Assembly: GCF_003044185.1 (NCBI RefSeq)
Contig: NZ_PYYB01000001.1
Coordinates: 2,004,978 to 2,068,977, forward strand
DNA: 64,000 nucleotides
Source of the DNA: Paraconexibacter algicola
Lineage (GTDB): Bacteria; Actinomycetota; Thermoleophilia; Solirubrobacterales; Solirubrobacteraceae
Direction: 5' to 3'
The notes beneath the pieces were generated by a model. It made no database searches. It worked only from the letters and a program-made list of their open reading frames with translations, and was not told the origin of the DNA. Made by a program: the position numbers and the translations under genes. Below are positions 29,215 through 51,197 of this stretch, piece after piece. Every line of letters starts with the position of its first letter. Positions within the stretch are counted from its first letter, which is position 1.

Positions 29215-30681
29215 GTGCCCGCGCCCGAAGGCGACCTTCTCGACTCCCCCGACGCCGGGGGCGCTGCGATCCGCGGCGGTGCGTTGCGCGTCGTCGGCTA
29301 CGCCCTCGGGATCGTCCTGTCGCTTGGATCGGCTGCCGTGCTCTTCCGGCACCTCGGGGTCGAGGACGGTGGCCGCTACGTCTCGGTTCAGGCTCTTGCC
29401 CTGCTGGCCGCCGGCATCACCGACGCGGGTCTGACCATCATCGCGGTGCGCGAATACGCCACGAGAAGCGGGGAGGAGCGCGACCGCATCCTGCGCGACC
29501 TCCTCGGCCTGCGCCTCGTGCTGACCCTCGTCGGGGTGCTCGTCGCGGTCGCGGTCGCCGCAGCGATCGGGTACGACTCGACGCTCGTGGCCGGCACGGC
29601 CGTGACCGGTGTGGCGGTCGTGTTCACGGTGCTGCAGAACGCCTACGGTGTCGGTCTGCAGGCCCAGCTGCGCCTGGGCTGGGTCACGGCGGCGGACGTG
29701 CTGCGCCAAGCCGCGACCGCGGTGGCGGTGGTCGTACTCGTCGTCCTCGACGCGAGCCTGCTCGAGCTCTTCCTTGCCGCGTTCGTCGGCAACCTCGTCG
29801 CGCTCGTGTTCATCGCGCTGGCCGCCCGCGGGACGATGCCGCTGCGCCCCGCCTTTCATCTGCGGCGCGCCATCGCGCTGCTGCGCGACACGCTCGTCTA
29901 CGCGATCGCGACCGCGATCGGAGCGCTGTACTTCCGGCTCGCCGTCGTGCTGGTGTCGCTCATCGCGACGGCGGACGAGACCGGCTACTTCGGCGCGTCG
30001 TTCCGCGGCGTTGAAGCGCTCATCGCCGTCCCTGCGCTGCTCGTCGGCACCGCCTTCCCGATCCTCGCCCGGGCAGCGCGCGACGACCACTCGCGTCTCG
30101 CCTACGCCCTCGGCCGGATCCTCGACGTCTCGTTGGTTCTCGGTGTGGGTGTGGCCGTAGCGCTCGTCGTCGGCGCGCCGGTGGTCATCGACGTGGTCGC
30201 CGGAGCGGAGTTCGCCCCGGCGGCGGACGTGCTTCGCATCCACGGCGTCGGCCTGGTGGCGTCGTTCCTCGCCGCGGGTTGGGGGTACGCCGCCCTCGGA
30301 TTGCACCTGCACCGCGGCGTCCTCTACGCGAACCTGGGGGCGCTGGTCGCGTGCGTAGTCCTCGTCCCCACGTTCACCGCCACCTGGGGTGCCACGGGTG
30401 CGGCGGTCGCCACCGCGACCGCCGAGGTGACGCTGGCCGTCGGCAACGCCCTGATCGTTCACCGTGCCGGTGTCGCACTGACCGCCGAGCTGCGGGCGGT
30501 GCCAAAGGTCCTGCTGTCGGCGGCGGCCGCGGTCGGCGTCGGCCTGTCCAGTGGTTTCCCCGCACTCCCAGGCACGCTGGTCGCCGGAGTCATCTACCTC
30601 GGGCTCGTGATCGCCCTGCGCGCACTCCCGCGCGAGATCCAGGACCATCTGCCCGGCCCGCTCGGCACCCGCAACGCATGA
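29215..30681 (+). CDS. Wzx-like polysaccharide flippase (MATE/MOP superfamily)
   Basis: A 488-aa integral membrane protein with about 12-14 hydrophobic segments. Typical features are GGALRVVGYALGIVLSLGSAAVLFRHLGV near the N-terminus, YFRLAVVLVSLIATADETGYFGASFR in the middle and GFPALPGTLVAGVIYLGLVIAL at the end, as in Polysacc_synt/Wzx proteins. It should flip undecaprenyl-linked repeat units to the outer face for the ligase/polymerase at 5278-7512. GTG start; it overlaps the next GT as ATGA, so flippase and GT are coupled. Confidence 0.87.
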   Translation: MPAPEGDLLDSPDAGGAAIRGGALRVVGYALGIVLSLGSAAVLFRHLGVEDGGRYVSVQALALLAAGITDAGLTIIAVREYATRSGEERDRILRDLLGLRLVLTLVGVLVAVAVAAAIGYDSTLVAGTAVTGVAVVFTVLQNAYGVGLQAQLRLGWVTAADVLRQAATAVAVVVLVVLDASLLELFLAAFVGNLVALVFIALAARGTMPLRPAFHLRRAIALLRDTLVYAIATAIGALYFRLAVVLVSLIATADETGYFGASFRGVEALIAVPALLVGTAFPILARAARDDHSRLAYALGRILDVSLVLGVGVAVALVVGAPVVIDVVAGAEFAPAADVLRIHGVGLVASFLAAGWGYAALGLHLHRGVLYANLGALVACVVLVPTFTATWGATGAAVATATAEVTLAVGNALIVHRAGVALTAELRAVPKVLLSAAAAVGVGLSSGFPALPGTLVAGVIYLGLVIALRALPREIQDHLPGPLGTRNA

Positions 30682-34274: not shown

Positions 34275-35453
34275 ATGAGCCTTCTCGAGCAGACCGACAC
34301 CGCCAACCGGGGCATGCCCGTCGACGAGTTCACGGTCTCCGTCGTGATCCCGTGCCTCAACGAGGAGGAGAACATCGAGGCCTGCGTCACGCAGGCGCTC
34401 GAGGCGATGGAGCGCGCCGGGATCGACGGTGAGGTCGTCGTCGCCGACAACGCCTCCGAGGACCGCAGCGCCGAGCTCGCCACCGCCGCGGGGGCGCGCG
34501 TGGTGTCGGAGCCGCGCCGCGGGTACGGGTCCGCGTATCTGGCGGGGTTCGCCGCCGCTCGCGGCAAGTACATCGTCATGGGCGACGCCGACCTGACGTA
34601 TGACTTCAACGAGATCCCGAAGTTCGTCAAGCACCTCGACGACGGCGCCGAGCTCGTCATGGGCGACCGGATGGACAACATCCAGCCCGGCGCGATGCCG
34701 TGGCTGCACCGCTACGTCGGCAACCCGGTGCTCAGCGGCATCCTGAACTTCTTCTTCAAGACGGGCATCAGTGACGCGCACTGCGGCATGCGCGCACTGC
34801 GGCGCGACGTGCTGCCGCGGCTGGACCTGCGGACGACCGGCATGGAGTTCGCGTCCGAGATGGTGATCCGGGCCGGCAAGGAGAACCTCCGCATCTCCGA
34901 GTTCCCGATCGACTACCACCCTCGCGGCGGCGAGTCGAAGCTCAACACGTGGAGCGACGGGTGGCGCCACCTGCGTTTCCTGCTGGTGCACTCGCCGACG
35001 CACCTGTTCGTCGCCCCGGGCGCGATCCTCGCCGGACTCGGCCTGCTCGTCTCGCTGATCTCCCTGCTGCAGATCGACCTGTTCGGTCGCGAGTGGCAGC
35101 TGCACACGATGATCGCCGGCGCGCTCCTGACGATCGTCGGAACGCAGATCGTCGCCCTGGGCCTCTGCGCCCACGCCTACGGCGCGTACTTCATGGGCGA
35201 GAAGGACCCCTGGTTCGACCGCATGCGCGACCGCTTCCGGCTCGAGCACGGCCTCGTCCTCGGGGGCGTGATCGCCACCGTCGGCTTCATCGTCGCCGCA
35301 GTCATCGTCGGTCAATGGATCGCCGACGGCGCGGGCCAGCTGTCCGAGGAGCGCACCGCCATCGCCGCCACGATGCTGATCATCGTCGGCGTGCAGGTGT
35401 TCTTCTCCTCGTTCCTGCTGAGCATCCTGGGCCTTCGGCGCCGGGACTCGTAG
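34275..35453 (+). CDS. Membrane-anchored family 2 glycosyltransferase (dolichyl-phosphate sugar synthase-like)
   Basis: A 392-aa protein. The GT-A domain (~20-250) has VSVVIPCLNEEENIEACV, EVVVADNASEDRS, the metal motif MGDADLTYDFNEI (DAD) and SDAHCGMRALRRD, as in the DPM1/GtrB-like GT2 group. Four hydrophobic segments follow (~255-390). Such enzymes charge a polyprenyl phosphate with a sugar that is then used on the outer face by GT-C enzymes. The DUF2142-like protein right behind it (3-base gap) could be that GT-C partner. ATG at 34275 is chosen; a GTG at 34230 would add 15 residues. Confidence 0.88.
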   Translation: MSLLEQTDTANRGMPVDEFTVSVVIPCLNEEENIEACVTQALEAMERAGIDGEVVVADNASEDRSAELATAAGARVVSEPRRGYGSAYLAGFAAARGKYIVMGDADLTYDFNEIPKFVKHLDDGAELVMGDRMDNIQPGAMPWLHRYVGNPVLSGILNFFFKTGISDAHCGMRALRRDVLPRLDLRTTGMEFASEMVIRAGKENLRISEFPIDYHPRGGESKLNTWSDGWRHLRFLLVHSPTHLFVAPGAILAGLGLLVSLISLLQIDLFGREWQLHTMIAGALLTIVGTQIVALGLCAHAYGAYFMGEKDPWFDRMRDRFRLEHGLVLGGVIATVGFIVAAVIVGQWIADGAGQLSEERTAIAATMLIIVGVQVFFSSFLLSILGLRRRDS

Positions 35454-35456
35454 TAC

Positions 35457-37679
35457 GTGGCGTCAGTGGCGCCCCCCGAGTCGCGGATGACGCGACTACG
35501 GACACTTGTGCTCCCGGGTGCTCGGGCCACGTGGATCGCCGCCCTGCTGGGCTTCTTGGTTTTCGCCGTACTGACAGCGCGAATGTTGTCAGCGACGACA
35601 GCGTCTCTCACGGGCACGAACAGCGTCGGTGTTGGGACGGTTATTGCGAAGGCCAACCCAGGCGAGCGAACCTGCATTCGCGGCCTCGTCGTTCCCCGAG
35701 GGACGGGGCAGGTCGGAGTGTGGTTGTTCGGCGAGCAAATTCGGCGTGGCGCTCGTGTTTCAGCGTCGATTACTTCGGGAGGCCCGGCGCGGCTCGCCCT
35801 CATCGACCGGTCGGTCTCCGGGACCGGGGACTTCGCCTACTTCCGGTTGCGGCAACCCGTCGCGAAAGAGATCCGAAACGCGACTCTCTGCGTGACCGGT
35901 CGCCGGACAGCGCTGGGATTTGGAGGGGCGTCCGTCCAGCGTTTGCCAGCGGACCCAGTCTCGACTCTAGGAGGCCGACCGATGGTCGGCCAAGACATCT
36001 CGGTTCGCTTTGCTTTGCCCGCGGGCGTGTCACGGAGTTTCGGGTCGCAGATCGACGACGCCCTGCGGCGCTCAACGGTTTTCGAGCCTCTAGCTGGACG
36101 AGTCTTGACGTGGAGTGCGCTTCCCCTGCTCCTGTTGGTGATGTATTTCGCAACTCGCGTCGCGGCTACGGCACAGCTGCGGAGCCAGAGGTACTTGGTC
36201 GTAGCCGCTTGCGGTGTGGCACTGGCCCATGGAGCGACGTGGGCTGTGCTGCTTCACCCGTTTCACGGAGCTGATGAGAGCGAGCATTTCGCATACGCAC
36301 AGCACCTCGCGGCCACTAACGATCGCCCGGACGACTCAGCCGATTCGCAAAGGCCGCCCTACTCCTCGGCCGAAGAGCGCCTCATGGCGGCGCTTCATCA
36401 CAACTCAACCACGCTCAATCCATCGTCGCGCCCAAGATGGGACGAGTTCTGGGAGACGCGGTGGCGAGAGGCGCTTCGCGGAACGAGCCCGAGCGATGGC
36501 GGCGGGTTTACCGAGAGCGGAACAGGGCACGGACCGCTCTACTACGGCCTAATCGGGCTCCCGCTACGCGTTTTCGATGCGCCAGCGCAGCAGCCGAGTG
36601 TGCTTCTGATGATGCGGCTTCTCAATGCGGTCCTTGCGGCACTCGTTGCCGGCATCGCAGTGATCGTCGCGGGACTTCTGTTTCCCCGACGCTCGGAGCT
36701 TCAGTGGCTCGCGGGAGTCCTCGCCGGGATGCAACCGGTGTTTGGCAGTGTCGCAGGTTCGGTCAACAACGACACGGCGGTCAACGTTGCAGCGGCAGTG
36801 ATGGTCCTGCTGTTGGTTACTAGCGTCGTCCGCGGTCCGTCGACGCGTCTAGCTGCGTGTGTTGGGGCGCTCATGGTTGTCCTGCCTCTGGCGAAGATCA
36901 CGGGCTTCGGCGTAGTTCCCGTGGTCGGGGTAGCCGCTTTCGTCCTCGCAATTCGGTACGGCGCCGGGGCAGCCGCGCGGTGGGCGATTACGGCACTCGG
37001 GCTGGCAGCCTGTTGCGCAGTCGCCTGGATCTTTGTGATCTCTCCGCTGATGGGAACAGGAAGCGGGAGCCTCGTCTATCGCCACCCAGCCGTGGCGAGC
37101 GCGCCCAACGGGTCGCCGACTCCAGGCCCGCCGGGACCGACTCCCATTCAGAAGGCTGAGTACGTAGCGCAGACCTTCATTCCTGGTTTGTCTGTGGGGG
37201 GGAGAAGGTTTGCGCTCCCAGGCGCGTCAGCACTAGAGCGCTGGCCGGCCTACCGCATCTACGTTGACCGTGGCTATGGCCTGTTCGGTTGGAAGTCGAC
37301 CAATCTGACCATCGGTCTCCTGCGTGGAATCTTTGCTGGTCTCTTGGTGGGCTGGATGCTCGCTATCGCGGCCGCGATCCGCCACCGCTCTCGCTGGAGA
37401 GAGTGGGCAGGGCCAGTGACGGTCCTTCTGGGCGCCATTGGCAGCGTGTTGCTCTTCGTCTCGTGGGCGTATGCGTCGCTCGATGTGCGCACAGACCTTG
37501 GAGAACAAGGGCGCTACATCTTCCCCGCGCTTGTCCCGCTGTCTGTGCTCTTGGTTTCCGGCGGAATGCTGGTGAAGAAGGCGGCCTACCGGCAGGCGTT
37601 TGCCGGGCTCGGCACCGTCGCTGCCTCCGGGCTCGCTGTTTTGACTTGGACCAGTGCCCTTCGTGGCTGGTTCACCTAG
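35457..37679 (+). CDS. DUF2142-like multi-pass membrane protein, candidate GT-C enzyme
   Basis: A 740-aa protein with one N-terminal TM, an extracytoplasmic domain (~50-210), then about ten TMs. The segment HPFHGADESEHFAYAQHLA in the first loop after the TM block, with an acidic DE pair, is typical of DUF2142 proteins thought to be polyprenyl-phosphate-sugar-dependent GTs. GTG start at 35457, with ATG at 35487 as an alternative. Codon use is clearly less G+C-biased than its neighbours, which suggests recent acquisition. The stop codon lies inside the stem of the terminator at 37675-37704. Confidence 0.8.
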   Translation: MASVAPPESRMTRLRTLVLPGARATWIAALLGFLVFAVLTARMLSATTASLTGTNSVGVGTVIAKANPGERTCIRGLVVPRGTGQVGVWLFGEQIRRGARVSASITSGGPARLALIDRSVSGTGDFAYFRLRQPVAKEIRNATLCVTGRRTALGFGGASVQRLPADPVSTLGGRPMVGQDISVRFALPAGVSRSFGSQIDDALRRSTVFEPLAGRVLTWSALPLLLLVMYFATRVAATAQLRSQRYLVVAACGVALAHGATWAVLLHPFHGADESEHFAYAQHLAATNDRPDDSADSQRPPYSSAEERLMAALHHNSTTLNPSSRPRWDEFWETRWREALRGTSPSDGGGFTESGTGHGPLYYGLIGLPLRVFDAPAQQPSVLLMMRLLNAVLAALVAGIAVIVAGLLFPRRSELQWLAGVLAGMQPVFGSVAGSVNNDTAVNVAAAVMVLLLVTSVVRGPSTRLAACVGALMVVLPLAKITGFGVVPVVGVAAFVLAIRYGAGAAARWAITALGLAACCAVAWIFVISPLMGTGSGSLVYRHPAVASAPNGSPTPGPPGPTPIQKAEYVAQTFIPGLSVGGRRFALPGASALERWPAYRIYVDRGYGLFGWKSTNLTIGLLRGIFAGLLVGWMLAIAAAIRHRSRWREWAGPVTVLLGAIGSVLLFVSWAYASLDVRTDLGEQGRYIFPALVPLSVLLVSGGMLVKKAAYRQAFAGLGTVAASGLAVLTWTSALRGWFT

Positions 37680-37704
37680 CGCGTCGCCGGAGCGACGCGC
37701 TAGG
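37675..37704. terminator. Perfect hairpin terminator between convergent genes
   Basis: A 13-bp perfect stem (core CTAGCGCGTCGC/GCGACGCGCTAG) with a CGGA loop, centred between the 3' ends of 35457-37679 and 37711-39789. It includes the TAG stop of the plus-strand gene. There is no long T-tract, but the size and position argue for a bidirectional terminator. Confidence 0.75.
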
Positions 37705-37710
37705 CCTCTG

Positions 37711-39789
37711 TCAGCCAACACGGACGGTGGCCGTCCTCCCCCTCGAGGTCCCGACCGCGAACGGGTAGCCGTCGGTCGGCATGGTCCGTGCGCGGAAGCT
37801 GTACCGACCGTAGGCCGCGGTGCCGAAGCGGTACTTGACGCTGAAGCGACCGTCGCGGCCCACTCGGAAAGTTCCGATCGTGCGCCAACTGCGACGGAAG
37901 TAGACCTGGAACTCGACGAGCTTCTCCCGACTGTTCGTGTGACCGCCTCGAAGCTGTCCGCGGAACTGTGCAAGTCCGCCGGAGCGGATCTTCTTGCGGA
38001 TCGCCCGTAGGGTGACGTGGGCCGTTACGCGCTGCCGCACGGTGAGCGTTGCGGCGTTGACGCCGTCACCTGCCGCCACGACCAGCGTCCGGCTGGGCCC
38101 GCGAGGAATCTGGAATGCCCAGTTGCCGTCCGGATCGGTGACGGTGCTCCCGAGCGCGACGGTCTTGCCGTTGACCGCCTGAGTGACGAACAGCTTGAGT
38201 CCGCCCATAGGTGAGCCGTCCGGACGCGTCAGGCGCCCGCGCATCTTGAAACTGGACCGCACCCAGCGTGCCTGCTTGCCAACGTAGACCGCCGTCTCTC
38301 GGCCAAGAAGGAACCTCACGGTGCCCGCAGCCCCGACGGTCGTTCCGCCCACAAGGGTGGTGCTGCTGTTCGCAGTCGAGCTGGTGTTGGTCGTCGTACT
38401 GCTTGAGCCAGGTGACGCGACGCTTCCGGGCCGGCTCGAGTCGTACGGAGCGCTGTCCGCCAGGTTCGGGACGCCATCCCCATCGAGATCGTCGTCGTTC
38501 CGATTCGCGATTCGGTCGCCGTCGAGGTCGCCGCACTCATCCGTCGAGCCGGTGGGGCGATTGCTGCAGTACGTGCTGACCAGCTGGCCATCTGCGAACG
38601 GAGGCTGCGTGATCGACGACTCCCGATCCGCTGTGCCGCCGTTGTCCGTGGCACTTACGCGACAGATCAGCTTTCGCCCCACATCGGCCGCAGAGATGGC
38701 GTAGGCGGCGTTCGTCGCCCCGGGAATCTCGTACCGCGCGCTGCCGTCGCTGGCAGCGCGAATCCACTGAAACCGCACATCCGGGATCTGGCCAGCGACC
38801 GGGGCCGTGCACGTCAGGACATCGCCCTCACGTGCCGTCCCGGAGAGCGCCGGGGCACCGACGGCAGGAGGCACATTGTCCACGGTGATCGTCCAAGGCC
38901 CGTGGAGCCGCTTGTTCTCGTCGGTGGCGTCACGGACGTCGAGTACGAGCTGATGCGTCCCGTCACTCAGGGTGCTGGTGTCGAAACTAACCGAGCCGCT
39001 CACATCTGGCTTGCACGGGGTTGGCGTCGTGAAGGGGAGGACGCACCGTCCGCCGTTAGCGTCCGCCAGTTCGGTGCTTCTTTCCGAGCCATCAACGATC
39101 AGGCGCTCGCGAAACACTCCGCCGCCAGCGTCTGTCGCGTCGTACGTCAGCGACCGGACTCGCGCGCGATCTGTCTCGCTCCGCAGCGTGCCCGCCACGT
39201 TGGCGAGATTTGGCGCCTGATTGTCGCGGAGCCGGATCTCGATGTCTTGCAGCGAGTACGACGTATCGCCCACGGGGCAGCCTGATGTGCCTTCGCAGTA
39301 CGCTCCCCAGGAGACGGACCGGTCCCCGTCTAGGGCGAGCGCCATCATGCCCTGTCCACTCGCAGGGTAGCCGGCGACAGCCGCGAACGCTTCGCGCGAG
39401 CCTGAGGGGATCGACGAGAGACGGGCCACGGGAGCACCGTTCGCGCGAGCTGCCCCAGCTGTGGCTGTCCGTCGCGCGCTAATCGAGTCCAGGCTTGTGC
39501 CTTGCGGAGCGCTAAAGGTCACCTGCGCGAACTCGCCGCCCGAACGCTCTCCGGATGCCGTCAGCGCGGCCCCGACGGTCCGGGAGCTCGGGTCGCAAGC
39601 TTGATTGGTGTACGCGTACGCGCCCTGGAAGCTGCCGACCAGCCCGCTGACGGCATAGTTGCTCTGGCTGTGGCACTGCTGGATCGTGTACGTGGCCGCG
39701 TGGGTTGCTGACGGGGCCGCGAGGATGCCGGCGGCGGTCAGGGTCGCGGCCACCAGGCCGAGAGCTCGGTGGCGTGGCCGGGGGTGCAT
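37711..39789 (-). CDS. Large secreted surface protein with Ig-like and TSP3 calcium-binding regions
   Basis: A 692-aa protein with a Sec signal peptide (~1-31, ending THA-A). An N-terminal ~250-residue Cys-containing domain (YTIQQCHSQSNYAVSGL start) is followed by Ig-like strands (DRARVRSLTYDATDAGGGV), a thrombospondin-type-3 calcium motif (DLDGDRIANRNDDDLDGDGV), a Ser/Thr linker and two C-terminal beta domains ending in a Gly/Arg-rich strand. No sortase motif or TM helix was seen. It is likely a calcium-stabilised surface or matrix protein. A ribosome site (AGGAG) sits nine bases before the ATG. Lower G+C than its surroundings. Confidence 0.82.
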   Translation of the reverse strand: MHPRPRHRALGLVAATLTAAGILAAPSATHAATYTIQQCHSQSNYAVSGLVGSFQGAYAYTNQACDPSSRTVGAALTASGERSGGEFAQVTFSAPQGTSLDSISARRTATAGAARANGAPVARLSSIPSGSREAFAAVAGYPASGQGMMALALDGDRSVSWGAYCEGTSGCPVGDTSYSLQDIEIRLRDNQAPNLANVAGTLRSETDRARVRSLTYDATDAGGGVFRERLIVDGSERSTELADANGGRCVLPFTTPTPCKPDVSGSVSFDTSTLSDGTHQLVLDVRDATDENKRLHGPWTITVDNVPPAVGAPALSGTAREGDVLTCTAPVAGQIPDVRFQWIRAASDGSARYEIPGATNAAYAISAADVGRKLICRVSATDNGGTADRESSITQPPFADGQLVSTYCSNRPTGSTDECGDLDGDRIANRNDDDLDGDGVPNLADSAPYDSSRPGSVASPGSSSTTTNTSSTANSSTTLVGGTTVGAAGTVRFLLGRETAVYVGKQARWVRSSFKMRGRLTRPDGSPMGGLKLFVTQAVNGKTVALGSTVTDPDGNWAFQIPRGPSRTLVVAAGDGVNAATLTVRQRVTAHVTLRAIRKKIRSGGLAQFRGQLRGGHTNSREKLVEFQVYFRRSWRTIGTFRVGRDGRFSVKYRFGTAAYGRYSFRARTMPTDGYPFAVGTSRGRTATVRVG

Positions 39790-39877: not shown

Positions 39878-41287
39878 TCATGGCAGGAACGCCTCCTGGC
39901 CGGCGGGGTCGGGCGCGGCCGGCGCGGTCGAGCCGCCTCCGGAGGAGGTGCTGCCGGAGGGCGCGGGGGCGCTTGAGGCGCTGCTCGCGGAGGGAGCGCC
40001 GCCGGACGCGACCGTGCCGAGCTCGAAGACGTCCTCCCGGCGCTCCGCCGCGCGCTGCCGTGCAGCGGCACGCTCGGCCGACCGCTCGGCACGCTGCTCG
40101 GCCGCCCGCTCACGCGCGCGCTCGCGGCGCACCGGGGCCTGCCGCTGCTCCTCGGATGCGCGGCGGATGACCGCCGGTGCCGGCGTGGCGGCGGACACCG
40201 CCACCGCCGGCCGGGCGACCGCGGTGATGGTCGGGCGGCTCGGGCTGGCGGCGCGGTCCTCCCCGCCGCCGGCGACCGTCCCGGCGCCCACGGCCACCGT
40301 GGCGGTCGTCGCGACCACCGCGCCGACCTTCGCGACGCCGGCCAGGCCACCGCCACCGAGGATCGCGCTGCCGACCATCTCGGTCCGCCCGCCGCCGCCA
40401 CCGCCGAACGGCACCAGATCCGCCAACCGCTCCACGAGCGTCCGGCCGTGCTCGCCGGCCGCCGCCCCCGGCAACGGCAGCACGCCCGCGGCGAGGCGGC
40501 CGGTCCGCCGGACCTGCGCCGCGTACGCGCGGCGGCACACGGCGCAGGCGTCCAGGTGCGCCATCGCCCGCCGGGCCGTGCCCTCGTCGTCGGAGCCGCC
40601 GAGCATCCGCAGGATGTCGCTCTCGCGCCGCCCGCACCACTCGCCGGCCCGCCGGATGCCGAGGAACACCTCGAGCTTGCGACCGGCGGCCTCCAGGTGC
40701 TCGGCGGTGGCGTGGCGGCTGATGCCCAGCTGGCGGGAGGTCTGCGCGACGGACAGCTCTTCGCCGTGGACGAGCTTCCACACCTCCGCCTCGCGCGGGG
40801 TCATCGCCGCGAGGAAGTCGCGGACGACGAGCAGCTCCTGCTCGTGGCTGATCCGGTCCTCGTGGTCGGCGAGGTCGTCGGGCAACAGGTCGAGCGCGTC
40901 GTTGTCCAGCTCGAACCCGCGGCGCTGCCGCCGCCGGAACACGTCGCGCGCCCGCAGCTCCATGCCGGTCCAGAGCGAGGCGCGCACGTGGTCGGCGTTC
41001 TCGAAGCGGTCGGCGCGGCCGACGAGGATCTCGGACGTCGCGTCGAAGAGCTCCTCGACGTCGTGCTCGGAGAGGCCGCTGAACCGCGGGTGTCGGGCCG
41101 CGCTCGTGGTCATGCGCGCCCGAGCGCTGACGACCATCTCGGCCACCTCGTCCGCGGAGAAGGCGCGCGGAGCTGCCGCTTCCGCCCGGTCTGTCGTGCT
41201 CCGCTGCCCGTCCCGTTCCTGCTGCGCCGCCAAGGTCGCCCCGCCTGCCGTGTGTCGCCCTACGTCGGCTCCGAGGGCCGACCCCAT
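39878..41287 (-). CDS. Sigma-70-like factor fused to zinc-finger and membrane tail
   Basis: A 469-aa protein. Residues ~50-130 match sigma region 2 (LSEHDVEELFDATSEILVGR ... LRARDVFRRRQRRG), ~155-215 region 4 (TPREAEVWKLVHGEELSVAQ, then TSRQLGISRHATAEHLE as the helix-turn-helix). Then comes an anti-sigma-like zinc finger (AHLDACAVCRRAY, HxxxCxxC), one hydrophobic segment (~290-330) and an Ala/Glu/Arg-rich C-terminus. A sigma factor with its own membrane tether could respond to an envelope signal and control the locus (inference). ATG at 41287; a GTG at 41314 is possible. Confidence 0.78.
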   Translation of the reverse strand: MGSALGADVGRHTAGGATLAAQQERDGQRSTTDRAEAAAPRAFSADEVAEMVVSARARMTTSAARHPRFSGLSEHDVEELFDATSEILVGRADRFENADHVRASLWTGMELRARDVFRRRQRRGFELDNDALDLLPDDLADHEDRISHEQELLVVRDFLAAMTPREAEVWKLVHGEELSVAQTSRQLGISRHATAEHLEAAGRKLEVFLGIRRAGEWCGRRESDILRMLGGSDDEGTARRAMAHLDACAVCRRAYAAQVRRTGRLAAGVLPLPGAAAGEHGRTLVERLADLVPFGGGGGGRTEMVGSAILGGGGLAGVAKVGAVVATTATVAVGAGTVAGGGEDRAASPSRPTITAVARPAVAVSAATPAPAVIRRASEEQRQAPVRRERARERAAEQRAERSAERAAARQRAAERREDVFELGTVASGGAPSASSASSAPAPSGSTSSGGGSTAPAAPDPAGQEAFLP

Positions 41288-41381
41288 GTGTCGAGTACGT
41301 CGACGAACGTGCACGGTAACGCCATGCGGTTCGGGGGCGAAGCAGTTGACACGAAATCGGCGCGAACGCCGAACGAACCCG

Positions 41382-46794: not shown

Positions 46795-47598
46795 CTAGAG
46801 GTTCTCGGCGATCCGCGGGCTCGCCCGGCGGAACACGAACGCCCCGGCCACGAACGCGCCCGCGATGATCCCCAGTGGGATCAGCAGCTCCGCGTAGCCC
46901 CCGATCAGCGACACGGTCGTCGGCGCGTCGGAGTCGATCACCGCGTGCCGCATCTGCGTCGTCAGCGACGCGATCGGGTTGTACAGCAGCGCCTGCTGGT
47001 ACTTGTCGGGCACGGTCGGATCCACCACGTACAGGACCGCGGACGCGTAGAAGAGGATCTGGCTCATGACCTCCCAGATCGGGAAGACGTCGCGGTACCG
47101 CACGTACAGGGAGCTCAGCAGCATCCCGATGCCGGTCGCGAAGATCGCCAGCAGCAGCACGATCGGGATCAGCTGCAGCCACATGAGCGTCGGATAGACG
47201 CCGTTGGCGAGCGCGAAGATCAGGGCCGCCCCGAGCGTCGTCATGAGGTTCATCAGCCCTGTCGCCGTCACCGACAACGGGATCACGATCGGCTCGAAAG
47301 CCATCTTCCGCAGCAGGCTCTCCCGCTCGACCAGGCACTGCACCGACGTGACCGTCACCTCGGCGAAGAAGTTGAACAGCACCATCGCGAACAGGATGTA
47401 GACGCCGTAGTTCTCGACGTTCGCGTCGAGCCCGGCGATCTCCGTGAAGACGAAGTAGATGACGCCGAAGAACGCGAACGGCCGCACGAGCGTCCACAGG
47501 ACGCCGAGCGTCGAGCCGTAGAAGCGCAGGCGGAAGTCGGTGACCGCCAGCGTCCAGACGAGGTTGAAGATCCGGCGTAGCTCGGACGTCGAGATCAT
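46795..47598 (-). CDS. wzm: Polysaccharide ABC exporter, permease subunit (Wzm-like)
   Basis: A 267-aa ABC-2-type permease with six hydrophobic segments. Typical landmarks are the amphipathic start (LRRIFNLVWTLAVTDFRLRFYGSTLGVLWTLVRP region), LVERESLLRKMAFEP and the YVRYRDVFPIWEVMSQILFYASAVLY segment. With the ATPase it exports a finished lipid-linked polysaccharide across the cytoplasmic membrane. The ATG overlaps the stop of the ATPase gene (ATGA), so the two are one transcript with the ATPase first. Confidence 0.92.
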   Translation of the reverse strand: MISTSELRRIFNLVWTLAVTDFRLRFYGSTLGVLWTLVRPFAFFGVIYFVFTEIAGLDANVENYGVYILFAMVLFNFFAEVTVTSVQCLVERESLLRKMAFEPIVIPLSVTATGLMNLMTTLGAALIFALANGVYPTLMWLQLIPIVLLLAIFATGIGMLLSSLYVRYRDVFPIWEVMSQILFYASAVLYVVDPTVPDKYQQALLYNPIASLTTQMRHAVIDSDAPTTVSLIGGYAELLIPLGIIAGAFVAGAFVFRRASPRIAENL

Positions 47599-48851
47599 CC
47601 GCGCTCGACCTCGAGCGAGTACGGCAGGTGGAGGATCGCGCCCGTGTCCTGGGTGGCGTGCACGTAGAGGGTCGCGAGGTCCTCGCGGAGGTCCATCGTG
47701 TCCGCCCCCGACCCGGCGCGCGCGACCGACGGCGTGAGCTTGTACAGCGAGGTCGCGAGGACCGCGTGGAACTCCATCCGCACGACCGCCTCCTCACCCG
47801 CCGCGTAGCTGCCGGTCTCCGTGCCCTTCCACTCGGAGGAGGCCGCGAACACGGTGTGGCCGATCTCGTTGCGCAGCGTGAACGCGAACACCGGGTTCTC
47901 GACCGCCTGATGGAAGTGGACCCGCATCGCGGCGGTCAGCCCGGTCCCGGTCCCGATCTGCGCGACGCGCTCGCCGAACGCCTCGAACCACGCGTCGGAG
48001 ATCTCGCACGCGACCTGGTCGCCGTAACGGCCCTCCTCGGTCGGCGTGTCGTGCACGAGCCGGCCGAAGTTCAGCTCGTTGTACGCCTGCGCGATCTCGT
48101 GCGGACCGGCGATGTCGAGCACGTCCCCGCGCTCGATCAGCATCGCCCGGTCGCAGAACCGCTCGACGGCGGCCATGTCGTGCGTGACGAACACGATCGT
48201 CTTGCCGGACGCGCGCAGCCGCGTGAACTCCTCGAAGCACTTCTGCTGGAAGGCCGCGTCGCCGACCGCGAGCACCTCGTCGACGAGCAGCACGTCCGCG
48301 TCGACCTGGATCGCGGTCGCGAACCCGAGCCGGACCGCCATGCCCGACGAGTAGTTCTTGAGCTTCAGATCCACGAACTCCTGCAGCTCGGCGAACTCGA
48401 CCACCTGATCGAACGCACGGCGCGCCTCGCGGCGGGTCAGGCCCATCATCACCGCGTTGATGACGACGTTGTCGCGTGCCGTCAGATCCGGGTTGAACCC
48501 GACGCCGAGCTCGATGAACGGGGACAGGCGGCCGTGGAGCTTCACGCGCCCGTGGTCGGGCCGGTAGATCCCCGCCAGGCACTTCAGCAGCGTGCTCTTG
48601 CCGGACCCGTTGCGCCCGACGATCCCGAAGAACTCGCCCTGCCGGATCGTCACGTCGACGTCCTTCAGCGCGTGCAGCTCGTCGTAGGTCATCGACCGCA
48701 TCGGGTGCAGCACGCGCTCCTTGAGCGTGTGGAACTGCTGGTGGGGCAGACGGAACGTCTTGCTGACGTGATCGACCTCGACAGCCGGTGGGGCGGCCGC
48801 GAGCCGCTCCTTGCGGCGCGCCTCGCGAGCCGTTGATGGTGCGCTGCTCAC
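47595..48851 (-). CDS. wzt: Polysaccharide ABC exporter, ATPase with C-terminal substrate-binding-like domain (Wzt-like)
   Basis: A 418-aa protein. The ABC domain (~20-265) has Walker A GRNGSGKST (79-87), signature YSSGM (167-171) and Walker B VLLVDE (187-192). A further ~150 residues (~270-418) contain VENPVFAFTLRNEIGHTVFAASSE and AGEEAVVRMEF, matching the carbohydrate-binding Wzt_C domain that recognises the modified end of a chain before export. That links it to a chain-end modifying enzyme such as the methyltransferase-containing protein at 53532. GTG start, nine bases after a TACCGT -10. Confidence 0.92.
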   Translation of the reverse strand: MSSAPSTAREARRKERLAAAPPAVEVDHVSKTFRLPHQQFHTLKERVLHPMRSMTYDELHALKDVDVTIRQGEFFGIVGRNGSGKSTLLKCLAGIYRPDHGRVKLHGRLSPFIELGVGFNPDLTARDNVVINAVMMGLTRREARRAFDQVVEFAELQEFVDLKLKNYSSGMAVRLGFATAIQVDADVLLVDEVLAVGDAAFQQKCFEEFTRLRASGKTIVFVTHDMAAVERFCDRAMLIERGDVLDIAGPHEIAQAYNELNFGRLVHDTPTEEGRYGDQVACEISDAWFEAFGERVAQIGTGTGLTAAMRVHFHQAVENPVFAFTLRNEIGHTVFAASSEWKGTETGSYAAGEEAVVRMEFHAVLATSLYKLTPSVARAGSGADTMDLREDLATLYVHATQDTGAILHLPYSLEVERG

Positions 48852-48932: not shown

Positions 48933-51197
48933 ATGACCGCCACACTGCTCTGCGCCGCTCTTGTCGTCGTCGGATCGCTCACGGTGGGGCAGGCTGTCCT
49001 GCGCCTCTGCGGCGCCTCGTCCTTCAGCTGGCTGTCGGCCCCGGTCGGCCTCAGTGCGCTCATGGTCCTCGGCAGCATCGCGGTCCATGTCCCGGGGCGC
49101 GCGAACACGACGGCGCTGCTGCTCGGTCTCGTGATCGTCGCCTCCGTGGTCCTGCAGGTCCGCGAGCCGGCGCAACGCCCGCCGCTCCTCGGACTCGCCG
49201 CAGCGCTCCCGGTACTCGGCCTCGTGCTGGTCCCGTTCGTCGCGGCGGGACATGGCGGGATCCTCGGGGTCAGCTTCAACAACGACACGGCCGCGCACCT
49301 CTTGCTGGCTGAGACGTACGGCGACGCCGCCGTTCAGCGCTTCTCGGAGCTCAAGCCGGTCGGCTACCCGCTGGGGCCGCACGCGCTGATGACGACCGTT
49401 GCCCACGTATTCGGCGTCCGCACCGACCACGCGCTCACCGGCTTGACCCTTGCGGTCCCGTTGCTGCTCGGGTGGACCGCACTCGGGGCACTCCAGCATC
49501 CGCGTCGATGGGCCGCACCGTTCGTGTGCCTCGTCGCGGGCATGCCGTACCTCGTGGCCGCGTACTACGGGCAGGGCGCGTTCAAGGAGCTCGTGCAGGC
49601 GCTCTTCGTGCTCGGCGCGGCGGTGGCGCTTGCCGTGCCGCCTGCCTTGCGGGCCCGGGCGAGGTGGGTGCCGTTCGCCATGGTGCTGGCAGGCACCGTG
49701 TCGGTCTACTCGACCGTCGGCATGGCATGGCCACTCGCGTTCGCTGCGGTCTGGCTCGCCTTCGAGGCGCTGGCGGTGCTGCGAGCGGGCGGAGGTCTCC
49801 GCGCGCTCCTGACCGCCGCCCGTGACGGCCTGGGTGCCGTGCTGATCGGGGTCGGGGTGCTCGTCGCCGTGCTGCTGCCCCAGCTCGGTCGGATCCTGGA
49901 CTTCGTCGGCAGCGACGCCGCCACGATCGAGGACAGCGATCTCGGAAACCTCGTCGGCCCGCTGCCTTTCGGGCAGGCACTGGGCATCTGGGACAACCCG
50001 GACTTCCGCTTTTCCGCGCTGAACGACAGGGCGATGCGGCTCTGGGCGGCGTTCGTCGGCGTGTTGCTCCTGGTGGCGCTGGTGCGCGCCGTCGGGCGCC
50101 GCAGGCTCATGGTGCCCGCGTGCGCCGCAACGGCTGCCGCGATCTGGGCGGTCTCGGATGCGAGCCAGTCCCCGTACGTCGCCGGCAAGGCGCTGATCAT
50201 CGCGTCGCCGCTGCTCCTGCTGATGGCGGCTCAGGCCCTCGTCGAGGGCGATGGGGCGATCGATCGCCGGCTCGGGCGGTTGCGCCTGATCGCGCCCATC
50301 GCCGCGATCGTGCTGGCCGTCGGCGTCACGGACGCCAGCACCAGCGCGCTGCGATTCGCGAAGGTCGGGGGCACGAGTCACGCTGACCAGCTCCGCGCGC
50401 TGCGTTCGACGCTCGACGCGCGTCCGACGCTCTTCCTCGGCAACGACGACTTCCTGCGCTGGGAACTCGCAGGGGTCCCTGTGGAAGCGCCGTTCATCGG
50501 ATTCCAGGTCCTGCCGATCAGGTCCGGGAAGCCCGCAGACGCCCTGGGTCCGTTCGATGTCGACAGCCTCGAAGCGTCGACGCTCAACCGCTTCACCTGG
50601 GTCATCGCGCCGCGCGATGCAACCGCGAGCAGCGTCCCCCGACAGCTCCGCCCGATCCGACGTACCCGCGACTTCGTGCTCTATCGGCGTACGGGCACGA
50701 TCGCCGAGCGCGAGATCCTCCCGACCGAAGGGGGCAATGGGGCGGCTCCCTTGGACTGCAGCACTCCTGAGGGTCTGCGCCTGAGTCGTCGCACGGGGAT
50801 CGCCGGCGTTCGGGCGCCCGCGGTCGGCGTCGAAGCCCCGCCCGTTCCTCCCGGTGGGCAGATCACGGTCACCCTTCAGCTGACTGCCGGATTGTGGGAC
50901 CTCGTCGCGCCGTACAGCGGACCACGGCCGCTCGAGGTCCGCTCCCCGGGCGGGTTCGCCCGCCGGCTGGAGCCGAACCTGGACCGGGGAGTGACGCGTT
51001 TCCCGATCGGGCGACTGCGGGTTCGCCGAGCAGGTCCGGTCGGGGTGACCTTCACCGCGATGGACACGCCGCTGACGGCCTCGTCCGACGTCACGACGGT
51101 CGGTGCCGTCATCGCGGTCCCGGTCGCCCCGGAGACACGGCTGCCACTGCCCGAGGCGTGCGGCAAGCTCGTGGACTGGTACTCCTTCCGGGAATGA
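48933..51197 (+). CDS. Large multi-pass membrane protein (DUF6541-like), candidate GT-C or polymerase
   Basis: A 754-aa protein with about 12 TMs in the first ~480 residues and a C-terminal extracytoplasmic beta-rich region (~480-754). The loop GVSFNNDTAAHLLLAETYGDAA contains an acidic Asp after a TM, as in GT-C-like proteins, and AYYGQGAFKELVQALFVLG is a typical large-membrane-GT segment. It may transfer a sugar or polymer outside. The last eight residues (VDWYSFRE) and the stop lie inside copy 3 of the 39-bp repeat, so the C-terminus appears to have been supplied by the repeat. Confidence 0.75.
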   Translation: MTATLLCAALVVVGSLTVGQAVLRLCGASSFSWLSAPVGLSALMVLGSIAVHVPGRANTTALLLGLVIVASVVLQVREPAQRPPLLGLAAALPVLGLVLVPFVAAGHGGILGVSFNNDTAAHLLLAETYGDAAVQRFSELKPVGYPLGPHALMTTVAHVFGVRTDHALTGLTLAVPLLLGWTALGALQHPRRWAAPFVCLVAGMPYLVAAYYGQGAFKELVQALFVLGAAVALAVPPALRARARWVPFAMVLAGTVSVYSTVGMAWPLAFAAVWLAFEALAVLRAGGGLRALLTAARDGLGAVLIGVGVLVAVLLPQLGRILDFVGSDAATIEDSDLGNLVGPLPFGQALGIWDNPDFRFSALNDRAMRLWAAFVGVLLLVALVRAVGRRRLMVPACAATAAAIWAVSDASQSPYVAGKALIIASPLLLLMAAQALVEGDGAIDRRLGRLRLIAPIAAIVLAVGVTDASTSALRFAKVGGTSHADQLRALRSTLDARPTLFLGNDDFLRWELAGVPVEAPFIGFQVLPIRSGKPADALGPFDVDSLEASTLNRFTWVIAPRDATASSVPRQLRPIRRTRDFVLYRRTGTIAEREILPTEGGNGAAPLDCSTPEGLRLSRRTGIAGVRAPAVGVEAPPVPPGGQITVTLQLTAGLWDLVAPYSGPRPLEVRSPGGFARRLEPNLDRGVTRFPIGRLRVRRAGPVGVTFTAMDTPLTASSDVTTVGAVIAVPVAPETRLPLPEACGKLVDWYSFRE

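What the first reader, a model, noticed from the sequence alone, without database searches (positions are those of the whole stretch)
35457..39789. Lower-G+C island with a DUF2142-like protein and a calcium-binding surface protein
Both genes use many A/T third positions, unlike everything around them, and are separated by the only long perfect hairpin in the window. The pair looks newly acquired or under different codon pressure and could be a serotype-type cassette.
Basis: seen in the sequence. Interest (0 to 1): 0.5.

Follow-up and report, generated by a model that had tools for sequence, protein, structure and literature searches.

The report
Swappable sugar-transferase slot beside conserved partner
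Two genes with unusually few G and C bases sit in a surface-sugar gene cluster of a soil actinobacterium; one looks like a membrane enzyme that decorates the outer sugar coat using a donor made by the conserved gene just before it, and related bacteria often carry a different gene in that place.

Summary
DUF2142 (35457 or 35487-37679 +) and the secreted Ig-like protein (37711-39789 -) have GC3 0.71 and 0.79; 0 of 327 genes sampled elsewhere in this genome lie at or below 0.80. The 13-bp perfect hairpin between them is the longest in the window and, as a sequence, unique in the genome; I read it as a bidirectional terminator between convergent genes.

DUF2142 is predicted to be a GT-C glycosyltransferase with an N-terminal jelly roll. 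It directly follows a highly conserved GtrB/ArnC-like polyprenyl-phosphate-sugar synthase (34275-35453). In 35 Solirubrobacterales loci the place after that synthase holds DUF2142 (13), another polytopic protein (9), or something else (13). That is the layout of multi-component transmembrane glycosylation (serotype-conversion-like) systems: constant donor maker, exchangeable transferase.

'Newly acquired' is not shown. The gene falls in a clade with its congeners' copies, two of which are equally low in GC3, and a second genus shows a low-GC3 DUF2142/surface-protein block in the same slot. Because low GC3 otherwise marks island DNA here, exchange of cassettes within the lineage is my preferred but unproven account. 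Sugar, acceptor and serology are untested.

The parts
34275..35453 (+). GtrB/ArnC/DPMS-like membrane GT2: polyprenyl-phosphate-sugar synthase, the constant partner (about 4 predicted TM segments)
   Evidence: PF00535 E 1.5e-28; PDB relatives ArnC 9hwj E 8.5e-20, dolichol-P-mannose synthase 5mlz 3.5e-18, sll0501 5eke 5.5e-7; 78-83% identical in 6 of 7 other genomes of the genus searched
35457..37679 (+). DUF2142 protein (GTG 35457 or ATG 35487): predicted GT-C glycosyltransferase, TM helix + jelly roll (about 41-176) + GT-C membrane core (about 228-730, numbering from 35487); variable partner, GC3 0.71
   Evidence: PF09913; model pLDDT 82, pTM 0.87; VIA-align Z 18.4 to Pmt4, 17.1 to ArnT; PMT_2 matched by 3 of 18 aligned relatives; D-E-x-x-H in 16 of 16 core-bearing rows
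35747..36013 (+). approximate middle of the jelly-roll-like N-terminal domain of DUF2142
   Evidence: beta strands 41-176 in the model; weak Foldseek matches to CBM61 (E 0.024) and CBM6 (E 0.04)
36273..36287 (+). D263-E264-x-x-H267 motif in the loop after the first helix of the GT-C core, candidate catalytic acid pair
   Evidence: catalytic role is inferred
37675..37704 (.). 13-bp perfect hairpin, overlapping the DUF2142 stop codon and ending 7 nt before the stop codon of the surface protein; probable bidirectional terminator without T-tract
37711..39789 (-). secreted surface protein (signal-peptide-like start, Ig-like beta domains, Ser/Thr-rich linker, one Asp-rich TSP3-like stretch), GC3 0.79
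   Evidence: SCAB-Ig 1.6e-6, TSP_3 0.67; homologues in 52 of 61 related genomes
39878..41314 (-). ECF-sigma-like protein with C-terminal extension, upstream of and co-directional with the surface protein
   Evidence: TIGR02937 E 5.4e-11, 42.4 bits against cut-off 42.9
46795..48851 (-). Wzm/Wzt-type polysaccharide ABC exporter: glycan export machinery of the locus
   Evidence: PF01061, PF00005, PF14524
48933..51197 (+). 754-aa polytopic protein of the family that replaces or accompanies DUF2142 behind the synthase in other genomes
   Evidence: no Pfam match

Best explanation
The DUF2142 gene encodes the acceptor-specific GT-C transferase of a GtrB/GT-C module. The neighbouring GT2 (34275-35453) charges a polyprenyl phosphate with one sugar on the cytoplasmic side; a flippase encoded elsewhere turns the carrier over; DUF2142 transfers the sugar outside the membrane onto the surface glycan of this locus, its jelly roll perhaps holding the acceptor. 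The synthase is constant in the order, whereas the slot behind it is a variable site whose transferase is replaced or moved between lineages, as in serotype conversion. The low GC3 of DUF2142 and the facing surface-protein gene is the mark of genes exchanged as cassettes among related Solirubrobacterales, not of one recent capture by this strain. The hairpin ends both converging transcripts. Shown: composition, conservation, adjacency, slot variability. Predicted: GT-C fold. Inferred: reaction, acceptor, flippase, cassette exchange, termination.
For: GT-C: model pLDDT 82.1, pTM 0.87; VIA-align Z 18.4 Pmt4 (368 residues, 3.4 A), 17.1 ArnT, 15.8 PglB, 15.4 AftB; Foldseek's two matches with E below 0.001 are both EmbB; PMT_2 or PMT Pfam matches in 3 and 2 of 18 relatives; D-E-x-x-H in 16 of 16 rows with the core. 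Donor maker: synthase relatives in PDB are ArnC, DPMS, sll0501. Pairing: in 146 genomes of the family, 23 of 75 synthase places (21 of 73 genomes) have DUF2142 directly downstream on the same strand, 13 more within 5 kb; jelly-roll-fused DUF2142 lies directly behind the synthase in 15 of 24 places against 3 of 66 core-only ones. Slot: of 35 loci, 13 DUF2142, 7 of the 48933 family, 2 other polytopic, 5 other co-directional genes, 6 convergent genes, 2 contig ends. Synthase identity in genus 78-83%, DUF2142 39-45% by search and 47% in the local BLAST to G004. Low GC3 in 5 of 20 DUF2142 genes and by 0.07 or more in 6 of 9 surface-protein genes. Literature: PMC8035078, PMC11127046, PMC3259042, PMC3688519 (passages).
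Against: No flippase gene of the GtrA family in the window; two PF04138 genes lie elsewhere. 39 of 75 synthase places have no DUF2142 match within 5 kb (many are on short contigs). DUF2142 in G002 and G007 is not beside the synthase. 15 of 20 DUF2142 genes have host-like GC3, so low GC3 is not general. The fused-versus-core contrast is biased, because the profile was built mostly from synthase neighbours. Foldseek TM-scores to EmbB are poor (0.27, rmsd 25 A). No sequence match of DUF2142 to PDB; the profile's 8 weak hits (best E 0.13) include no glycosyltransferase. Acceptor and sugar unknown.
Confidence: 0.6

Rival explanations
1. The two genes were recently captured as one segment from a lower-GC donor outside the genus.
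For: Extreme and uniform GC3; a separate low-GC3 island in this genome carries a sigma plus surface-protein pair with SIR2-like and PIN-TPR proteins and a weak TcpC match; slot empty of DUF2142 in G003 and G005.
Against: DUF2142 groups with three congeners at 100/99 and with the same four-taxon split as the synthase; two congeners' copies are as low in GC3; no mobile genes, tRNA or strong flanking direct repeats at the ends; no phage or plasmid match.
Confidence: 0.17
2. Low GC3 is kept by selection or weak codon selection (slow translation, low expression) in genes that were inherited vertically.
For: Low GC3 in G000, G002 and G007 copies that differ by more than half of their residues, so synonymous sites should be saturated; the surface-protein gene is low in 6 of 9 cases.
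Against: G004's copy, nested in the same clade, has GC3 0.97; 15 of 20 DUF2142 genes are at host level; two further own-genome loci matched by the surface protein have GC3 0.98.
Confidence: 0.2
3. DUF2142 is a protein O-glycosyltransferase whose substrate is the adjacent secreted protein, so enzyme and substrate travel together.
For: Best structural neighbours include protein O-mannosyltransferases; the window's surface protein has a 40-residue stretch with 53% Ser+Thr; DUF2142 and surface protein are close together in the window, L108, L111 and L132.
Against: The three other DUF2142-linked surface proteins have no such linker (best 0.28-0.33), while L100, not linked to DUF2142 on its contig, does; the surface-protein family occurs in 52 of 61 genomes, DUF2142 in 34 of 61.
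Confidence: 0.12
4. DUF2142 polymerises or ligates glycan repeat units (WpsI or WpsJ role in lactococci) and does not add side branches.
For: DUF2142 proteins are assigned such roles in Lactococcus and Pseudolactococcus (PMC12599335, PMC9746298; passages).
Against: The GtrB-like partner makes a monosaccharide donor; the locus has a Wzm/Wzt exporter that usually carries finished polymer.
Confidence: 0.2

Closest known systems
Gtr serotype-conversion systems (gtrA-gtrB-gtr(type)) of Shigella and Salmonella
   Same: Conserved polyprenyl-P-sugar synthase followed by a divergent membrane transferase; gtrA and gtrB conserved and interchangeable, gtr(type) specific (PMC3259042 passages); GtrC families share little identity (PMC3688519 passages)
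   Different: No gtrA next to it, no phage, chromosomal glycan locus, actinobacterial DUF2142 transferase with N-terminal jelly roll
Multi-component transmembrane glycosylation systems of Gram-positive bacteria (CsbB/GtcA/YfhO, CsdA/CflA/CsdB)
   Same: Membrane GT-A plus GT-C, flippase gene may lie elsewhere; some GT-Cs carry carbohydrate-binding domains (PMC8035078 passages)
   Different: Different transferase family; acceptor unknown; slot contents vary across an order
Citrobacter youngae O1 ORF12 (GT136) three-component system
   Same: GT-C with an extra carbohydrate-binding domain, acting after polymerisation on an ABC-exported O antigen (PMC11127046 passages)
   Different: Donor there is made by a phosphoribosyl route, not by a GT2
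Lactococcal and streptococcal DUF2142 proteins (WpsI/WpsJ type)
   Same: DUF2142 polytopic proteins in cell-wall polysaccharide loci; a bactoprenol glycosyltransferase next to DUF2142 is noted in Pseudolactococcus (PMC12599335 passages)
   Different: Assigned there to polymerisation or side-chain transfer, without biochemical proof; different phylum

Membership tests
Pfam DUF2142 (PF09913) | match above the curated cut-off | tested here: met
   62.8 bits against 30.1
GT-C fold glycosyltransferases | polytopic membrane core with GT-C arrangement | tested here: met
   predicted model only: 37 of the 50 listed VIA-align rows are GT-C enzymes or complexes by their titles as I know them, Z up to 18.4 over 368 residues
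GT-C fold glycosyltransferases | conserved acidic residues in the first outer loop | tested here: met
   D-E-x-x-H after the first core helix in 16 of 16 rows; catalytic role not tested
Multi-component transmembrane glycosylation (Gtr-like) system | polyprenyl-phosphate-sugar synthase beside the GT-C | tested here: met
   homology to ArnC, DPMS, sll0501; adjacency 23 of 75 places in the family; activity not tested
Multi-component transmembrane glycosylation (Gtr-like) system | dedicated flippase | tested here: inconclusive
   two GtrA-family genes elsewhere in the genome; a Wzx-like protein at 29215-30681; no link to this pair shown
Classical three-gene gtrABC cassette | gtrA directly with gtrB and gtrC | tested here: not met
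   both PF04138 matches lie outside the window
Phage-borne serotype-conversion cassette | carried by a temperate phage | tested here: not met
   tblastn of DUF2142 found no match in 50,697 phage records; no phage genes in the scanned neighbours
Serotype-determining locus | changes surface glycan structure or antigenicity | not testable with these tools
   needs glycan analysis of mutants
TSP3 calcium-binding surface protein | TSP3 repeat match above cut-off | tested here: not met
   PF02412 E 0.67, 10.1 bits against 25
Intrinsic terminator | GC-rich hairpin followed by a T-tract | tested here: not met
   hairpin present, no T-tract; a terminator without T-tract is not excluded

The most novel reading that the evidence does not exclude
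The place behind this synthase is an order-wide exchange site for glycan decoration in Solirubrobacterales: one constant GtrB-like donor maker whose transferase partner (jelly-roll GT-C DUF2142, the unnamed 48933 family, or others) is swapped as a low-GC cassette, often with a sigma-controlled surface protein, giving the equivalent of serotypes in a group where none are described in the papers I could search.
Probability: 0.3. Interest if true: 0.6.

Novelty: new member of a known kind. Interest (0 to 1): 0.42.

Why it matters
If right, it gives a concrete function to a DUF2142 branch (GT-C partner of a GtrB-like synthase) and a marker for surface-glycan diversity in Solirubrobacterales, soil actinobacteria whose surface polysaccharides I found hardly treated in the library searched. 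The constant-plus-variable layout makes the question testable: delete the slot gene and look for one missing sugar. It also cautions that a G+C outlier can be a long-lived, lineage-wide trait of a slot and need not be a fresh capture.

Tried and rejected
Hairpin as a member of a repeat family or recombination site: the core pattern occurs at one palindromic place in the held assembly. Direct repeats as cassette borders: only short two-copy matches, the longest 23 nt at 74%. RNA family: no Rfam match in 30-45 kb. tRNA as insertion site: none in the window. Promoter scan: none found, 0.3 expected. PDB by sequence for DUF2142: nothing; with the profile only weak, unrelated hits. Fold of the surface protein: model too weak (pLDDT 64.7, pTM 0.40); its Foldseek list is led by complement-type proteins with TM-scores near 0.15, which I take as generic strings of beta sandwiches and do not use. 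48933 family as a GT-C: profile comparison with DUF2142 aligns only 23 columns at the DE motif (83%), suggestive, not claimed. Pairing outside the order: no DUF2142 profile match in 46 more distant synthase-like loci. Protein-substrate idea: not supported by the linkers of DUF2142-linked surface proteins. L130's slot protein first counted as polytopic transferase is a GGDEF protein and was moved.

Limits: the family counts scored only the best candidates per genome, so they are lower bounds; many assemblies are fragmented; I kept 105 matches as core places and 14 N-terminal rows apart, and left out one second-half row of G036; one of the 105 fits neither class. The 24-versus-66 contrast is biased by a profile built mainly from synthase neighbours and is not corrected for kinship.

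Full report
What is there. The window is 64 kb of a 4.74-Mb genome (contig C1, 2004978-2068977) of 72.7% G+C. The genus is probably Paraconexibacter, since one genome of the same genus (G007) has the contig length of NZ_CP098502.1, P. antarcticus. The region is a surface-glycan locus: glycosyltransferases, WsaF-like transferases, a Wzm/Wzt exporter, RmlC, a GDP-mannose dehydratase family protein, a Wzx-like protein and a sugar-phosphate transferase.

The observation. DUF2142 (35457 or 35487-37679) has GC3 0.705 and the convergent secreted-protein gene (37711-39789) 0.790. Expected from the codon usage of the other window genes: 0.934 and 0.925; they are the two lowest of 50 genes by this measure. 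In 327 genes from 20 evenly placed stretches of the genome the median is 0.978, sd 0.020, and 0 of 327 lie at or below 0.80. At fourfold sites A+T is 32% in DUF2142, 22% in the surface-protein gene and 5% in the synthase. The wider locus is also depressed: 12 of 52 window genes have GC3 below 0.90 against 4 of 382 sampled genes. The caller was home-made and trained on window genes including these two.

The hairpin. At 37675-37704 lie 13 perfect pairs with a loop of four, overlapping the DUF2142 stop codon. It is the longest perfect hairpin of the window; 20 Markov simulations gave at most 12 pairs. Its core occurs once in the held assembly. Local folding energy at this border is as low in only 0.7% and 0.3% of 400 random 90-nt windows on the two strands; the next strongest border is also between convergent genes (43772/43776, 1.3% on both strands). 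Of nine convergent borders four reach 5% on at least one strand, of eleven tandem borders none. There is no T-tract and the consensus terminator scan did not list it. I read it as a bidirectional terminator without T-tract; this is inference.

What DUF2142 is. Pfam gives PF09913, E 3.4e-17. With 18 rows from the window and named loci AlphaFold2 gave pLDDT 82.1 and pTM 0.87: one TM helix, an outer beta domain (41-176), then a helical core. VIA-align's best rows are Pmt4 (Z 18.4, 368 residues, 3.4 A), ALG12, ArnT (17.1), an archaeal oligosaccharyltransferase, PglB (15.8) and AftB (15.4). Against this: such Z-scores can reach about 14 in unrelated helical models according to the tool's note, and Foldseek alone found only two matches below 0.001, both EmbB, with poor TM-scores. 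Independent support: 3 of 18 aligned relatives match PMT_2 and 2 match PMT in Pfam. D-E-x-x-H follows the first core helix in 16 of 16 rows with a core. Acidic motifs in this loop of GT-C/PMT enzymes are described in PMC7801869 (passages). The beta domain resembles jelly rolls, with weak matches to carbohydrate-binding modules (CBM61 E 0.024, CBM6 E 0.04).

Its partner. The gene directly upstream (34275-35453) is a membrane GT2 related to ArnC, dolichol-P-mannose synthase and sll0501. In the genus it is 78-83% identical in 6 of 7 other genomes (G001 has only distant matches), whereas DUF2142 is 39-45% by search and 47% to G004 in the local BLAST; G003 has only fragments, G005 and G006 have no match. 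In several loci the two genes overlap or lie within a few bases (start codons as called by my script).

The slot. Among 35 loci (34 named, fetched by the synthase, plus the window), the next gene is DUF2142 in 13 (three as a separate N-domain gene first, one behind a 129-aa ORF, one a fragment), a member of the family of window gene 48933-51197 in 7, another polytopic protein in 2 (L106, L112), another co-directional gene in 5 (one cut off by a contig end), a convergent gene in 6, and a contig end in 2. Inside the genus clade of the synthase tree the slot differs from genome to genome: DUF2142 (window, L101), a 300-aa gene (L100), convergent genes (L102, L104, L121). Over 146 genomes of the family, 75 synthase places in 73 genomes were found; 23 places in 21 genomes have DUF2142 directly downstream on the same strand, 13 more within 5 kb otherwise placed, 39 none. 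DUF2142 with the jelly roll fused lies directly behind the synthase in 15 of 24 places, core-only forms in 3 of 66 (Fisher p 1.6e-8), split pairs in 5 of 14. The profile was built mostly from synthase neighbours, which biases this contrast.

Origin. In the DUF2142 tree the copies of G000, G002, G004 and G007 form one clade (100/99), with G000 and G002 together (98/92). The synthase tree gives the same split of the four (L101 = G004 and L104 = G007 together in a fork of support 98). Low GC3 occurs in 5 of 20 DUF2142 genes: G000 0.71, G002 0.66, G007 0.70, L108 0.75, L132 0.70; G004, nested in the clade, has 0.97. In G002 and G007 the gene sits beside WsaF-like genes, not beside the synthase. 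In L108, L111 and L132 the slot holds DUF2142, a 48933-family gene and the surface protein in differing order; GC3 of the surface gene is 0.79, 0.82 and 0.84. A fresh capture by this strain is therefore not shown. Yet low GC3 here goes with island DNA: 2462-2478 kb of contig C1 has called genes of GC3 0.71-0.84, encoding a SIR2-like protein with HEAT and weak NACHT matches, a sigma plus surface-protein pair, a PIN-TPR protein and a weak TcpC match, while two other loci matched by the surface protein have GC3 0.98. I therefore prefer repeated exchange among relatives.

The surface protein. It begins with a signal-peptide-like stretch, has Ig-like matches and homologues in 52 of 61 related genomes. 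Its Asp-rich TSP3-like stretch is present only in the window's copy among 8 aligned. A sigma-like gene stands next to it in the window, in G003 and G018 (the G003 protein had only a weak BLAST match to the window's and no sigma match in Pfam or NCBIfam) and in P. antarcticus.

Comparison with the literature. Multi-component transmembrane glycosylation systems have a membrane GT-A, a flippase often encoded elsewhere, and a GT-C (PMC8035078, passages). Such systems also act on ABC-exported O antigens, and some GT-Cs carry carbohydrate-binding modules (PMC11127046, passages). In Shigella gtrA and gtrB are conserved and interchangeable while gtr(type) is specific (PMC3259042, passages); in Salmonella GtrC families are far more divergent than GtrA and GtrB (PMC3688519, passages). 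DUF2142 proteins are proposed as polymerases or side-chain transferases in lactococci and streptococci, once beside a bactoprenol glycosyltransferase (PMC12599335, PMC9746298, passages). The library holds three papers with 'DUF2142'; searches listed none on this locus. The library covers open-licence PMC papers only.

Verdict. A real outlier; a probable GtrB/GT-C glycosylation module with an exchangeable transferase, a new member of a known kind. Biochemistry is untested.

Noticed in passing
L099 (own genome C1:2462000-2478000): Separate low-GC3 island (called genes 0.71-0.84) with a SIR2-like protein (HEAT, weak NACHT matches), a sigma-like plus surface-protein pair paralogous to the one in the window, a PIN-TPR-GreABC protein and a weak TcpC (conjugation) match: looks like a defence-carrying mobile element.
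   Followed up: partly
window 39878-41314 and L097, L082, L104: Sigma-like or sigma-position proteins with long C-terminal extensions stand next to the Ig-like secreted protein, sometimes with 4-nt overlap; a possible dedicated control of surface-protein expression.
   Followed up: partly
window 48933-51197: 754-aa polytopic protein without Pfam match; its family occupies the slot behind the synthase in 7 of 35 loci and has an invariant Asp aligned with the DUF2142 DE motif.
   Followed up: partly
L107 10914-12997, L115 11218-13301, L120 2724-4953: DUF2142 is split into an N-domain gene and a membrane-core gene, suggesting that the fused form arose by joining two neighbouring genes (or the reverse).
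   Followed up: partly
L104 14300-15486: IS3-type transposase gene pair directly beside the surface-protein gene in Paraconexibacter antarcticus.
   Followed up: no
L111: Record titled Bifidobacterium breve MAG groups with Solirubrobacterales by gene content and synthase tree; the title looks wrong.
   Followed up: no
L123 13687-15316: Two co-directional ORFs with GC3 0.63 and 0.56 and no Pfam match, right behind DUF2142.
   Followed up: no
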